64,000 bases of DNA from an uncultured Clostridia bacterium (GTDB taxonomy: Bacteria > Bacillota > Clostridia > Lachnospirales > Lachnospiraceae), in the NCBI GenBank assembly GCA_948467395.1, contig CAOKDX010000007.1, positions 1-64,000 of the forward strand, in the 5' to 3' direction. Shown one piece after another: positions 46,644 to 51,041 of the stretch. The notes beneath the pieces were generated by a model that saw only the letters and a program-made list of their open reading frames with translations, searched no databases and was not told where the DNA came from. Each line of letters opens with the position of its first letter. Position 1 is the stretch's first letter. Position numbers and translations under genes: made by a program.

Positions 46644-47198
46644 TCATCTCATGGATCCGGACATCATGCATACTCCGCACGCTCCCTGATCCATAACGGA
46701 CCCTTCATTTTCCCGGGAGATCCCCCCAATGCCGTAAACGGGAATTGATACCCTGCTGCATAGATTGTTAATAAAATCCAGTCCCCTGGGCGGCAGATCC
46801 GGTTTACAGCCAGTGGGGAAAATATGTCCGGCTGTGAGATAGGCTGCCCCCAGGTACACCGCCTCTTCCGCCTCCTCCAGGGAATGCACGGAAGTCCCGA
46901 TTTCTCTAAAGAAAGCTTTCTCTTCTTTCCCCATTGTCCGAAACAGGGGCAGCGGCAGATGGATCAGAGGATGCCCGCAATCCTTCGCTGCCCGGCAGAA
47001 GGTGTGCAGAACACATTTTTTGCCTGTTTCCTGACAGACCGCCAGCACCTTTCTGGCAAGTTTTCTGTATTCCTCCTCCGTCATATCCTTCTCCCGGAGA
47101 AGAATGGCATCATAGAAAGGGTCCTCCGCCAGTTTCCGAATCCGCACAAGAAAATCATCCTGACAGAGATGGCGGTTTGTCACTGCTATCCTATACAT
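46644..47198 (-). CDS. thiE: Thiamine phosphate synthase-like protein (ThiE/TenI)
   Basis: 184 residues, shorter than the usual 205-220. TIM-barrel pattern: YDAILLREKDMTEEEYRKLA, HLPLPLF, GTSVHSLEEAEEAVYLGA, TAGHIFPTGCKPDLPPRG and VYGIGGISREN. The H-I-F-P-T-x-x-K loop and GIGG phosphate motif fit. ThiE couples the pyrimidine and thiazole halves; TenI paralogues only aromatise the thiazole. The short length and lack of a clear pyrimidine-site motif leave TenI open. The start overlaps thiH by eight bases. Confidence 0.8.
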   Translation of the reverse strand: MYRIAVTNRHLCQDDFLVRIRKLAEDPFYDAILLREKDMTEEEYRKLARKVLAVCQETGKKCVLHTFCRAAKDCGHPLIHLPLPLFRTMGKEEKAFFREIGTSVHSLEEAEEAVYLGAAYLTAGHIFPTGCKPDLPPRGLDFINNLCSRVSIPVYGIGGISRENEGSVMDQGACGVCMMSGSMR

Positions 47199-48396
47199 AA
47201 ATAGAATCGCTCATGACAGGCTGCATTCCATAAGACAGAATATCATCGTATACTTCCTGCACATCCCTGGTATCATCAATCTCAAACTGCTCATCCCCCA
47301 TCTCTTCCCCGCTGTGTCCTCCAATGCCCACATCTACCCCGGCTGAAATCTTCGTGGCCGCAATCTGGATCAGATTATCCCGCACGCGCTTGCACTCGCG
47401 GGTAGATATTGTAATAGAGGCAAAGGGCAGGAGCAGACGGTAGGCGCACACCACCTGAAGAAGCTGCGCCTCATGTACATCCATTGGATGGATCCGGTCA
47501 TTATTGATGATCGGGCGCAGTCTCGGACAGGAAAAAGCAATCTCCGCCTGAGGATATTTTTTCTGCAGCAGCCAGGCATGTGTCCCTGTGGCAAAGGCGT
47601 CTCGGCGAAAATCATCCAGCCCCAGAAGAGCGGCGAAGCCCACTCCCCTCATCCCGCCTTTCAGGGCGCGCTCCTGGGCATTGATGCGGTAGGGAAAAAT
47701 CCGTTTCCGCCCTGCCAGATGAAGCGTCTCATATTTATCCGGGTTATAGGTCTCCTGAAATACAGTGACATAATCGGCACCACATTCATGCCAGTAACGG
47801 TAATCCTCCGAATCTGCCGGATATACCTCCAGGCCCACCACCTTAAAATATTTTCTTGCCGTCCTGCACGCCTCTCCAATGTATCTCACATCGGACATCC
47901 TGGGGCTCTCCCCTGTCAGAATCAGGATCTCCTGAAGACCGGATCTGCTGATCTCCTTCATCTCCCTCTCAATCCCGTCCATATCCAGTCTGGCACGGCG
48001 GATCTTATTGTGGCATTGAAACCCACAGTAGATACAATAGTTCTCACAATAGTTGGCTATATACAGCGGAGTAAACATCATAACAGAGTTGCCGAAATGC
48101 CTTCTGGTCTCCTTCTGCGCCATCTGTGCCATCTCTTCCAGAAAAGGCAGCGCCGCAGGAGAAAGAAGTGCTCCGAAATCCTCCAGCGTCCGGTTCCCGC
48201 TCCCAATGGCACGGATAACATCCTCCCCTGTATAACCGTTATAATCATAAGCATTCACTGCCTCCATCACCTGTGCGGCAATGTCCGAGTCCAGCACCTC
48301 CATATCATCCAGATAGGTCATATGATCGATGCGGTTCTCTTTCAGATCCTCCCGGACCGATTCACTTAGAATGCTCTCATTGATCTTATTCTTCAT
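47191..48396 (-). CDS. thiH: 2-iminoacetate synthase (radical SAM)
   Basis: 401 residues from the ATG at 48396 (AAGGAG before it). Radical SAM cluster motif CENYCIYCGF, GE motif in ILILTGESPRMSDV, and C-terminal FEIDDTRDVQEVYDDIL typical of ThiH. It splits tyrosine to dehydroglycine for thiazole formation, an oxygen-free alternative to ThiO, which fits an anaerobe. Between thiG and thiE. Confidence 0.95.
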   Translation of the reverse strand: MKNKINESILSESVREDLKENRIDHMTYLDDMEVLDSDIAAQVMEAVNAYDYNGYTGEDVIRAIGSGNRTLEDFGALLSPAALPFLEEMAQMAQKETRRHFGNSVMMFTPLYIANYCENYCIYCGFQCHNKIRRARLDMDGIEREMKEISRSGLQEILILTGESPRMSDVRYIGEACRTARKYFKVVGLEVYPADSEDYRYWHECGADYVTVFQETYNPDKYETLHLAGRKRIFPYRINAQERALKGGMRGVGFAALLGLDDFRRDAFATGTHAWLLQKKYPQAEIAFSCPRLRPIINNDRIHPMDVHEAQLLQVVCAYRLLLPFASITISTRECKRVRDNLIQIAATKISAGVDVGIGGHSGEEMGDEQFEIDDTRDVQEVYDDILSYGMQPVMSDSIYV

Positions 48397-48400
48397 ACAT

Positions 48401-49198
48401 TCACTTCTCCTTCCCACTTCCATCCTGAATGTATCCGGTCAGGGGGGACGAAGCGCTGCCGCCCCGTTCCAGCACACGCCCCGTTCCGGCAAGATATGCT
48501 CTCCTTCCCGCCTCCACTGCCAATTTAAACGCCTCAGCCATAGCCGGTATATCCCCTGCCGTGGCAATGGCAGTATTGGCCATAATGGCCGCCGCCCCCA
48601 TCTCCATGGCGGCACACGCCTCTGACGGTTTGCCGATTCCCGCGTCTACAATAATGGGAAGATCTATTTCCTCAATGAGAATCCGGATAAATTCTTTCGT
48701 GCAAAGACCTTTATTCGAGCCGATGGGAGCGGCCAGCGGCATAATGGATGCCGCCCCCGCCTCCCTTAGATCCCTGGCCGTATTGAGATCCGGATACATA
48801 TACGGCATAACGATAAATCCCTCTTTGGCAAGTATCTCCGTCGCTTTCACGGTCTCAGAATTATCTGGCAGCAGATATTTTGTATCCCGCATAATCTCAA
48901 TCTTTACAAAATCACCGCATCCAACTTCTCTTGAGAGCCGGGCAATCCTCACTGCCTCATGGGCGTTCCTTGCCCCGGATGTATTGGGAAGCAGGGTAAC
49001 CCCCTCCGGAATATAATCCAGTATGTTTGCCCGTCCATCCTGATTGGCACGGCGCAGCGCCAGTGTAATTATCTCCGCTCCGGCCTGCTCCACGGAGGCC
49101 CGGATCAGATCCAGCGAATATTTCCCGGATCCTAAAATAAACCGGGAGGTAAATTCATGACCTCCCAAAACCAATTTGTCATTTCTATTTTGCGTCAT
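48401..49198 (-). CDS. thiG: Thiazole synthase
   Basis: 265 residues. [19 protein letters not shown] at the start, Schiff-base Lys in [24 protein letters not shown], and [15 protein letters not shown] with the phosphate loop [13 protein letters not shown]. ThiG condenses deoxyxylulose phosphate, dehydroglycine and ThiS thiocarboxylate. Follows thiS. Confidence 0.96.
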
Positions 49199-49249: not shown

Positions 49250-49447
49250 TCAGCCTCCGCCCACGAAACTGACTACCTCGATTCTGTCACCGTCATGCAG
49301 ATATGTTTCATTATATTGCTTCTTACGGATGATCACACCATTGATCTCAATGGCAATCCGGTTCCGGTCAAACCCTTCCCTGTCAAGCATCTCCGTAATG
49401 GTGATCTCATTGTAATCTGCCCTGTTTTCTCCATTTATCGTAACCAT
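49250..49447 (-). CDS. thiS: Sulfur carrier protein ThiS
   Basis: 65 residues from the ATG at 49447, six bases after AGGAGG. Beta-grasp protein ending VVSFVGGG; the terminal glycines receive sulfur. A third glycine at the end, rather than two, is seen in many Clostridia. No thiF adenylyltransferase is in the operon, so another E1-like enzyme must activate it. Its leader carries a terminator immediately before the ribosome site. Confidence 0.93.
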   Translation of the reverse strand: MVTINGENRADYNEITITEMLDREGFDRNRIAIEINGVIIRKKQYNETYLHDGDRIEVVSFVGGG

Positions 49448-49469
49448 CGGCATCCTCCTTTCCTACAAG

Positions 49470-49538
49470 AAAAAAAGACACCTCAAGAAGTTTCACACCC
49501 GTGGTGGTGTGCCCCTTCTTGAGGTGTCCCTCAATCTG
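49470..49538 (-). promoter_or_regulatory. thiS leader RNA with mutually exclusive terminator and antiterminator
   Basis: The RNA starts near 49538 on the minus strand. A perfect 14-bp stem (arms 49515-49528 and 49477-49490) with an inner CACACC/GGTGTG helix (49506-49511 with 49494-49499) is followed by seven U (complement of 49470-49476): a complete intrinsic terminator. An upstream TTGAGG (complement of 49529-49534) can pair with CCTCAA (complement of 49519-49524), a 6-bp hairpin that would break the terminator. Only 22 bases separate the U-run from the thiS ATG, too few for another promoter, so thiS expression needs readthrough. No TPP aptamer is visible. It may be a thiS-motif RNA. Confidence 0.75.
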
Positions 49539-49544
49539 CTGGTT

Positions 49545-49573
49545 ATCATATCATATTCTAATGACGATGTCAA
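49545..49573 (-). promoter_or_regulatory. Promoter of the thiS-G-H-E operon
   Basis: On the minus strand TTGACA (complement of 49568-49573), 17 bp, TATGAT (complement of 49545-49550). Start predicted near 49538, giving a leader of about 90 nt. Confidence 0.8.
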
Positions 49574-49586
49574 GATGAGGTTCCGT

Positions 49587-49760
49587 CTATGAACTCCTGG
49601 CACAAATATTCTCAAAAAAATCAAGCAGTTTCCGGCAGTCCTGATACTGATGATAAATTCCGCCCTCCATGTAATCCTTCATCATCCTGGCTATAATGGA
49701 ACACCAATCGAATTTTCTATTGAAAAAAACATCGCCCCCGGCCAGATTGCCGCAGTACAA
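49587..49760 (-). CDS. Possible 57-codon frame or gene remnant
   Basis: An open frame starts at a TTG at 49760 right after an in-frame stop and ends at 49587. It encodes a peptide with KFDWCSIIARMMKDYMEGGI and YQDCRKLLDFFENIC, which looks like real protein sequence rather than noise. There is no ribosome site. It may be the 3' remnant of a lost gene, or a small gene downstream of rtcB. Not recognised. Confidence 0.3.
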   Translation of the reverse strand: MYCGNLAGGDVFFNRKFDWCSIIARMMKDYMEGGIYHQYQDCRKLLDFFENICARSS

Positions 49761-49808
49761 TATTTATGGTATACCGGACAGCACACCGCTGGCACCGCCT
49801 GGCAGAAG

Positions 49809-51041
49809 TCAGCCTTTCACAACGCCGACAGTCTTTAACTTGCGCACCGGCGTCACCATATCCAGCTGCTGCGCCATAACCTCATCGATATCTTTGTAGG
49901 CAAAACGGCACTCTTCTGCCACATCATTTTTCTTCCGTTTGCCAAGGACAACCCCCTGTTCCTTCAGATCCACCATAACCTTCTCAATCGAAAACGCCTT
50001 CATTGCGCCGGAACGGGAATAATTTCTTCCCGCACCGTGGGAGGAGGAACAGAAGGATTCCCTGTTCCCCTTCCCCTCTACCACATAGCTGTAGGACCCC
50101 ATAGCCCCCGGTATCACAGCCATTTCCCCCTCCCTCACCCTGGTGGCTCCCTTGCGGTGTACCCACACATTGGCGTCATAGTGGTTTTCCAGGGCGGCAT
50201 AGTTGTGATGGCAGTTGATCTCCTCTCCAAATTCCACGATCTGTCCCATATGCTTTTCAATCAGCTCCTTTACAATCGAACATGTCTTATCCAGCATGCG
50301 GGCGCGATTCTCAAAGGCATAATCCATAGACAGATTCATCCAGTGGATATACTGCTGTCCCTCATCGGAGTGAACGGGAAGAAAGGAAAGCCGGTACTCA
50401 TTCTTTACCTCGCTGTACCACATCCGGTTCAGCTCTCCTGCCCTCGTATGAAAATAATCGCAGACTGCCTTCCCCAGGTGACGGCTCCCGGAGTGGATCA
50501 TGATGCACAGATATCCATCCTGATCCTCCTGCAGCTCTATAAAGTGATTGCCTCCTCCCAGGCTCCCCACCTGGAAATATCCGTCCTGGATCAGTGGCAG
50601 CAGCTCGGTATCCTTGTCGTATTTATCTATTTCCTGTTTCGCCCGGTCAAGCACCTCTGATCTCTGGGGCTCCCGATACCTCTCGGCATTTAAAGGAACC
50701 GCCCTCATCACACTGCCGACGATAGCCTGGATCAGAGAGCCGTTTCCCGTCTGGATCTTCCGTATATCCTCCAGACGGATATTGGTAGGGATAAAATCCA
50801 TGCCGCATCCGATATCAACCCCTACGGCGTTCGGTATGATCACATCCCTGGCGGCGATCACACCTCCTATGGGCATCCCCTTCCCGGCATGGGTGTCCGG
50901 CATAAGACAGACCCATTTATGTAAAAAGGGAAGCCGGGACAGATTACAGGCCTGTTCCAGACAATTTGCCTCCAGCTTTGTCTCATCCTCCAGCCATATT
51001 TTTACGGGAAATTTAGTATTCTCATTATTTAGCACAAACAT
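49809..51041 (-). CDS. rtcB: RtcB-family RNA ligase
   Basis: 410 residues. Metal-binding motifs PDTHAGKGMPIG (48-59) and GVDIGCGM with Cys79; GNHFIEL and HSGSRHLG; and the guanylylation site in SSSHGAGRNYSR, where a His accepts GMP. RtcB joins RNA 3'-phosphate or cyclic phosphate to 5'-OH ends and works in RNA repair. The protein is shorter than E. coli RtcB, typical of the Firmicutes form. A divergent WYL regulator gene starts 170 bases away, an arrangement recalling the RtcR control of rtc genes, though of another regulator type. Confidence 0.95.
   Translation of the reverse strand: MFVLNNENTKFPVKIWLEDETKLEANCLEQACNLSRLPFLHKWVCLMPDTHAGKGMPIGGVIAARDVIIPNAVGVDIGCGMDFIPTNIRLEDIRKIQTGNGSLIQAIVGSVMRAVPLNAERYREPQRSEVLDRAKQEIDKYDKDTELLPLIQDGYFQVGSLGGGNHFIELQEDQDGYLCIMIHSGSRHLGKAVCDYFHTRAGELNRMWYSEVKNEYRLSFLPVHSDEGQQYIHWMNLSMDYAFENRARMLDKTCSIVKELIEKHMGQIVEFGEEINCHHNYAALENHYDANVWVHRKGATRVREGEMAVIPGAMGSYSYVVEGKGNRESFCSSSHGAGRNYSRSGAMKAFSIEKVMVDLKEQGVVLGKRKKNDVAEECRFAYKDIDEVMAQQLDMVTPVRKLKTVGVVKG

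What the first reader, a model, noticed from the sequence alone, without database searches (positions are those of the whole stretch)
49447..49573. Very short thiS leader that can switch between terminator and antiterminator, without a TPP aptamer
Promoter (TTGACA-17-TATGAT), a start near 49538, a 14-bp terminator with U7, and the thiS ribosome site follow one another within 130 bases. The terminator sits so close to the ATG that thiS-G-H-E can only be expressed by readthrough. The 5' arm of the terminator can instead pair with TTGAGG near the 5' end of the RNA. The sensing part would then be at most about 60 nt. The known TPP riboswitch is not there. A conserved thiS RNA motif of unknown ligand has been described in Firmicutes; this could be an example, or something new.
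Basis: partly seen in the sequence, partly recalled or inferred. Interest (0 to 1): 0.8.

Follow-up and report, generated by a model that had tools for sequence, protein, structure and literature searches.

The report
HMP-PP riboswitch before thiS
This short stretch before vitamin B1 genes matches a known kind of RNA switch, described in 2019, that lets the thiazole genes be made only when the other half of the vitamin (HMP-PP) is available; it looks like an ordinary member of that class.

Summary
In detail: on the minus strand a sigma-70-type promoter, a predicted start near 49538, a 14-bp terminator stem with U7 and, 22 nt later, the thiS ATG; no TPP aptamer; the terminator's 5' arm can pair instead with UUGAGG at the RNA's 5' end. 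The unknown-ligand reading is outdated: this fits the thiS motif, shown in 2019 (Atilho et al., eLife 8:e45210) to be the HMP-PP riboswitch, whose aptamer lies inside the terminator. The core GGGG..ACCACC..GGU is the same in 75 of 75 loci read; terminator and alternative P1 helix both covary; 74 of 75 loci precede thiS or thiG, the last thiamine_BP-thiW. Counted from 49538, the published residues that I could check fall in place. No Rfam 15 family matches it, so Rfam-only annotation misses it. Two modest extras: nt 46-48 are AAA, the letters of the published M3 mutant that was needed to see binding in vitro; and the only TPP riboswitch found in the genome precedes thiC, so TPP may reach thiS-G-H only through HMP-PP (inferred). 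New member of a known kind.

The parts
49568..49573 (-). -35 box TTGACA
   Evidence: like position in many relatives
49545..49550 (-). -10 box TATGAT, 17-nt spacer; start predicted at about 49538
   Evidence: the start is predicted, not mapped
49529..49534 (-). P1 5' strand UUGAGG (nt 5-10), aptamer/ON form
   Evidence: P1 covaries
49519..49524 (-). P1 3' strand CCUCAA (nt 15-20), shared with the terminator 5' arm
49515..49528 (-). terminator 5' arm (nt 11-24)
49512..49515 (-). GGGG (nt 24-27), published pseudoknot partner
   Evidence: 75 of 75 loci; published M1 site is G26
49494..49511 (-). P2 hairpin CACACC-ACCACG-GGUGUG, with C35 at 49504
   Evidence: published M2 site is C35
49491..49493 (-). 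AAA at nt 46-48, the letters of the published M3 mutant (U46A, U47A, U48A)
49477..49490 (-). terminator 3' arm (nt 49-62)
49470..49476 (-). U7 tract, predicted termination (nt 63-69)
   Evidence: published RNA stops near nt 66
49454..49460 (-). Shine-Dalgarno AAGGAGG of thiS
49250..49447 (-). thiS
   Evidence: TIGR01683 68.7 bits, cut-off 37.45
48401..49198 (-). thiG
   Evidence: PF05690 336.5 bits, cut-off 23
47191..48423 (-). thiH
   Evidence: TIGR02351 500.2 bits, cut-off 380
46644..47198 (-). thiE/tenI-like gene, nearer TenI
   Evidence: PF02581 117.2 bits; TenI 97.6 and ThiE 75.1 bits, both under their cut-offs

Best explanation
This is an HMP-PP riboswitch (thiS motif), an ON switch. RNA polymerase starts at about 49538. 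The first 20 nt form P1 (UUGAGG/CCUCAA), then P2 (CACACC/GGUGUG) forms; the GGGG before P2 and the C's of its loop are the proposed ligand-binding pseudoknot of the class. While the polymerase is at the U-tract, HMP-PP can hold this form, the terminator cannot close, and thiS-G-H and the tenI/thiE-like gene are transcribed. Without HMP-PP the terminator's 5' arm leaves P1 and pairs with the 3' arm, and transcription stops in U7. Shown here: the parts, the core, covariation of both helices, gene context, no TPP aptamer. Inferred from the published class: ligand, ON direction, timing. In this genome the only TPP riboswitch found lies before thiC, so TPP probably shuts HMP-P synthesis and the fall of HMP-PP then shuts the thiazole genes (inferred).
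For: Core nt 24-27 (GGGG), 31-36 (ACCACC) and 40-42 (GGU) are the same in 75 of 75 loci (the loci were chosen with core and model, which favours this). The terminator covaries: 74 distinct rows, 97.3% of cells paired, 15 of 20 pairs with changes on both sides, score 0.520 against 0.199 +/- 0.009 shuffled and at most 0.127 slid. P1 pairs better with its own arm than with swapped arms: 11.3 against 8.7 +/- 0.22 over 75 loci, and 10.6 against 8.56 +/- 0.45, 0 of 1000 swaps as high, over 20 loci with unlike arms; at least 4 bp in 67 of 75. Residues of the published C. sp. Maddingley RNA (G24-27, C35, loop 35-39, stop near nt 66) fit the window counted from 49538; C. beijerinckii HUN142 (L110) fits too, with UUUU at 46-49. 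72 of 75 loci precede thiS and 2 thiG; of the 53 found by the RNA model alone, 50 and 2; the last precedes thiamine_BP and thiW. Of 78 motif genomes of the family 21 have a TPP element within 700 nt upstream, near the 20-30% in print. Own genome: TPP, then thiC.
Against: No binding or expression data for this RNA. The published sequence itself was not held and figures cannot be read, so identity rests on numbered residues, a relative and context; the start of L110 was set to fit the numbering. No Rfam model confirms it. The window has AAAC, not UUUU, at nt 46-49. P1 is under 4 unbroken bp in 8 of 75 loci, and 22 of 75 have no good promoter at the expected place, some of them behind a TPP element. 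Computed switching lies at 57 exposed nt, against 52-54 measured for the published RNA.
Confidence: 0.96

Rival explanations
1. A variant of the class that binds another thiamin-pathway compound (for example HMP-P, HET-P or TPP) through the same fold.
For: The ligand was not tested for this RNA; nt 46-49 differ from the published RNA.
Against: The core positions are kept (75 of 75), and the M3 change at 46-48 kept the HMP response in cells and HMP-PP binding in the published RNA.
Confidence: 0.03
2. A plain intrinsic terminator or attenuator without a ligand, or one worked by a protein.
For: The stem is strong on its own.
Against: The loop and GGGG, which a plain terminator does not need, are constant over 75 loci while the arms vary; a second helix covaries with the same arm; 74 of 75 copies sit before thiS or thiG.
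Confidence: 0.01
3. An undescribed riboswitch class.
For: No Rfam 15 family matches it (74 related loci at gathering score).
Against: It fits the published thiS-motif anatomy, numbering, gene context and tandem frequency.
Confidence: 0.005

Closest known systems
HMP-PP riboswitch (thiS motif): Stav et al. 2019 BMC Microbiol 19:66 (PMC6429828, passages seen) and Atilho et al. 2019 eLife 8:e45210 (PMC6478431, abstract and parts 1-6 of 9 of the main section read)
   Same: Size, numbered residues that could be checked, P1/P2 against terminator, GGGG and loop C's, U-tract, place before thiS, own promoter
   Different: AAA at nt 46-48 in place of UUU, so nt 25-27 cannot form G-U pairs with 46-48; no tandem TPP riboswitch (as in most published copies, by their 20-30% tandem)
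TPP riboswitch (RF00059)
   Same: Controls thiamin genes; 10 of 74 related loci carry it upstream of this motif at gathering score
   Different: No match here; other fold, size and ligand

Membership tests
HMP-PP riboswitch (thiS motif) | Extended terminator hairpin followed by a U-run of six or more | tested here: met
   14-bp stem plus 6-bp cap, U7; covaries. The paper's stem is uninterrupted; here a 3x3 internal loop lies at nt 25-27/46-48
HMP-PP riboswitch (thiS motif) | Alternative P1 stem at the 5' end, exclusive with the lower terminator stem | tested here: met
   UUGAGG/CCUCAA; own against swapped arms; computed crossover at 57 exposed nt against 56 for C. beijerinckii
HMP-PP riboswitch (thiS motif) | G24-27 and loop with C35 (M1 = G26, M2 = C35), termination near nt 66 | tested here: met
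   Counted from the predicted start 49538: GGGG 24-27, C35, U-tract nt 63-69
HMP-PP riboswitch (thiS motif) | Upstream of genes for making or using HET-P | tested here: met
   thiS-G-H; 74 of 75 loci before thiS or thiG
HMP-PP riboswitch (thiS motif) | Pseudoknot between G's 24-27 and loop pyrimidines | tested here: inconclusive
   G24-27 and C35-C36 do not vary in 75 loci, so covariation cannot be seen
HMP-PP riboswitch (thiS motif) | Binds HMP-PP and turns expression on | not testable with these tools
   Needs transcription, reporter or in-line probing assays
HMP-PP riboswitch (thiS motif) | Match to a curated model | tested here: inconclusive
   No Rfam 15 family matches the window RNA or the motif in 74 related loci at gathering score; the class seems not to be in this copy of Rfam
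TPP riboswitch (RF00059) | Match to the TPP covariance model | tested here: not met
   None in the window at gathering score, none at E up to 10 in 49300-49800

The most novel reading that the evidence does not exclude
Split logic gate. In genomes like this one the thiazole genes carry the HMP-PP riboswitch alone and TPP control sits on thiC, so HMP-PP itself carries the TPP message to the thiazole genes: two separate RNAs linked by a metabolite compute what a tandem TPP/HMP-PP leader computes in one RNA. In addition this RNA is a natural M3-type switch, not trapped by G-U pairs, that should bind HMP-PP without engineering, at the price of some leakiness.
Probability: 0.45. Interest if true: 0.4.

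Novelty: new member of a known kind. Interest (0 to 1): 0.2.

Why it matters
It settles the finding as a known switch and shows that annotation by Rfam alone misses it. It also offers a natural sequence with the letters of the mutant that was needed for binding studies, which could make structural work simpler, and a genome in which the two branches of thiamin synthesis may be linked by a metabolite rather than by a tandem leader.

Tried and rejected
Rejected: TPP riboswitch; the PutA thermometer, bglG, microRNA and snoRNA matches at E 1.8-9.2, all far below gathering scores; a new class; a chance hairpin.

Led nowhere or corrected: searched for 'thiS motif', which the search cannot tell from the words 'this motif'; the ten papers listed are unrelated and the zero means nothing. 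The OFF energies were faulty and were replaced; the conservation counts stand. Alignment A2 holds 12 antisense echoes of the near-palindromic stem; I remade it without them (A4).

Rows dropped: of the 30 thiS loci (L002-L031), 8 gave no motif (L010, L016, L021, L022, L025, L026, L030, L031). L016 seems cut inside the motif by the contig end; L026 and L030 show what I read by eye, from a recalled pattern, as a TPP element. L002, L032, L033, L034 and L043 repeat other loci and were left out of the 75. Matches that were not fetched (weaker ones) were not read. Of the 22 pattern hits (the pattern asked for UUUU at nt 46-49), 20 match the model and 19 have a thiS, thiG or thiH match within 1800 bases; L106 and L113 look like chance, and the L102 locus ends about 0.86 kb after the motif.

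Full report
What is there. On the minus strand, TTGACA (49573-49568), 17 nt, TATGAT (49550-49545) and a predicted start near 49538 are followed by an RNA of 69 nt up to the end of U7 (49470), then AAGGAGG and the thiS ATG at 49447. It folds into a 14-bp stem, a 3x3 internal loop and a 6-bp cap hairpin; z -6.4 for 49440-49545. UUGAGG at nt 5-10 can instead pair with CCUCAA at nt 15-20, part of the terminator's 5' arm. The promoter scan saw one site in 49400-49850, this one; the terminator scan, which does not allow an internal loop, saw none. The operon is thiS, thiG, thiH and a ThiE/TenI-family gene.

Relatives. The window's ThiS found a match in 41 of 99 genomes, its own included. Of the 30 thiS loci fetched, 22, the window among them, carry the motif: 19 of the same genus and 3 of the same family. 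A covariance model from these 22 (R1) matches 78 of 397 genomes of the family and 50 of 391 of the class at E up to 0.001; the two sets overlap and include the own genome and some training genomes. I read only loci that were fetched, the best-scoring ones: 75 distinct sense copies with the window, 53 of them found by R1 alone. In the own genome the only other match is the antisense echo of the same hairpin.

Tests. Positions 24-27 (GGGG), 31-36 (ACCACC) and 40-42 (GGU) are the same in 75 of 75; choosing loci by core and model favours this. The terminator stem covaries: 74 distinct rows, 15 of 20 pairs with changes on both sides, 97.3% of cells paired, 58.6% at most in slid registers. That alignment was fitted to the structure and so leans that way; a swap test on the single sequences does not use it and gives 26.5 against 13.6 +/- 0.5. 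P1, tested in the same way, gives 11.3 against 8.7 +/- 0.22 over 75 loci and, over 20 loci whose arms differ at three or more of ten positions, 10.6 against 8.56 +/- 0.45, none of 1000 swaps as high. P1 has at least 4 unbroken bp in 67 of 75. So in many copies the RNA is predicted to begin just before the P1 strand. In 22 of 75 no good promoter was found there; in 10 of 74 related loci a TPP riboswitch stands upstream.

Identity. I recalled the HMP-PP riboswitch and then read the paper (PMC6478431, abstract and parts 1-6 of 9 of the main section). It describes a terminator-embedded aptamer with G24-27, M1 = G26C, M2 = C35G, loop 35-39, G-U pairs of 24-27 with 46-49, M3 = U46A, U47A, U48A, and a stop near nt 66. 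Counted from 49538 the window has GGGG at 24-27, C at 35, AAA at 46-48 and its U-tract at 63-69. The published Maddingley record is not held. Clostridium beijerinckii HUN142 (L110), of the genus of Maddingley, has GGGG at 24-27, C35, UUUU at 46-49 and U61-66 and lies before thiS; I set its first base, 5 nt behind its -10 box, to fit the numbering, but the distances between these residues do not depend on that. Gene context agrees: 72 of 75 before thiS and 2 before thiG, 50 and 2 of the 53 found by R1 alone; the last, behind a TPP riboswitch, before a thiamine-binding protein and thiW. TPP elements within 700 nt upstream occur in 21 of 78 motif genomes of the family (TPP matches at E up to 0.001, some under the gathering score); the papers give about 20% and about 30%. 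Reviews (passages seen: PMC7266159; PMC9481103; PMC9971707) treat the class as established. No Rfam 15 family matches this RNA or the motif in 74 related loci at gathering score.

What differs. Positions 46-48 are AAA here and in L003; in 8 of 75 copies none of G25-27 can pair with 46-48 in the fixed register. In the published RNA the M3 change gave detectable expression without added HMP and was needed to see binding by in-line probing. So the window RNA may be leakier and may bind without engineering; this is inference. Energies of growing transcripts cross from the P1 form to the terminator form at 57 exposed nt here and at 56 in C. beijerinckii; for the Maddingley RNA the paper saw the change at 52-54, so the computed numbers are off and only the likeness counts.

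Wiring. In the own genome the one TPP match lies about 94 nt before the thiC match, a ThiD-like kinase (PF08543) is on another contig and a thiE over the cut-off on a third. Of 57 family genomes with the motif and no TPP element within 700 nt, thiC was found in 50 and has a TPP element within 6 kb upstream on its strand in 46 (32 within 600 nt); 4 have none found and 7 have no thiC found. Against a special link: in the 21 tandem genomes thiC was found in 15 and has a TPP element in 15 of 15, so TPP control of thiC is general. Genomes are in pieces, so absences are weak. The pattern is compatible with TPP acting on the pyrimidine branch and HMP-PP relaying the signal to the thiazole branch where no tandem element exists. 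The held main text of Atilho et al. has no word beginning with thiC; I made no wider literature search on this point.

Noticed in passing
L089:9089-9207 (own genome, C3), L037:1244-1416, L041:553-717: Clostridiales-1 RNA (RF01699) lies near thiamin elements: about 0.7 kb upstream of the TPP riboswitch of thiC in the own genome, between the TPP riboswitch and the HMP-PP motif in L037, and upstream of the motif in L041.
   Followed up: no
L007, L009, L015, L019: In these same-genus relatives similar palindromic repeat units sit between the HMP-PP terminator and thiS, which then begins about 155-280 nt behind the model's end.
   Followed up: no
L116:5774-6662 (same genome as L074): Tandem TPP and HMP-PP elements precede a thiamine-binding protein gene (PF01910) and thiW (PF09512).
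   Followed up: partly
46644-47198: The gene called thiE scores higher as TenI (97.6 bits) than as ThiE (75.1 bits), both under the curated cut-offs; a ThiE over the cut-off is at G000:C15:21221-21802.
   Followed up: partly
L026, L030: By eye, a TPP riboswitch stands before thiS in place of the HMP-PP motif in these two relatives, L026 of the same genus and L030 of the same order.
   Followed up: no
49809-51041: The upstream neighbour on the same strand is an RtcB-family RNA ligase-like gene (NF052663 271.9 bits, PRK09588 160.5 bits, both under their cut-offs).
   Followed up: no
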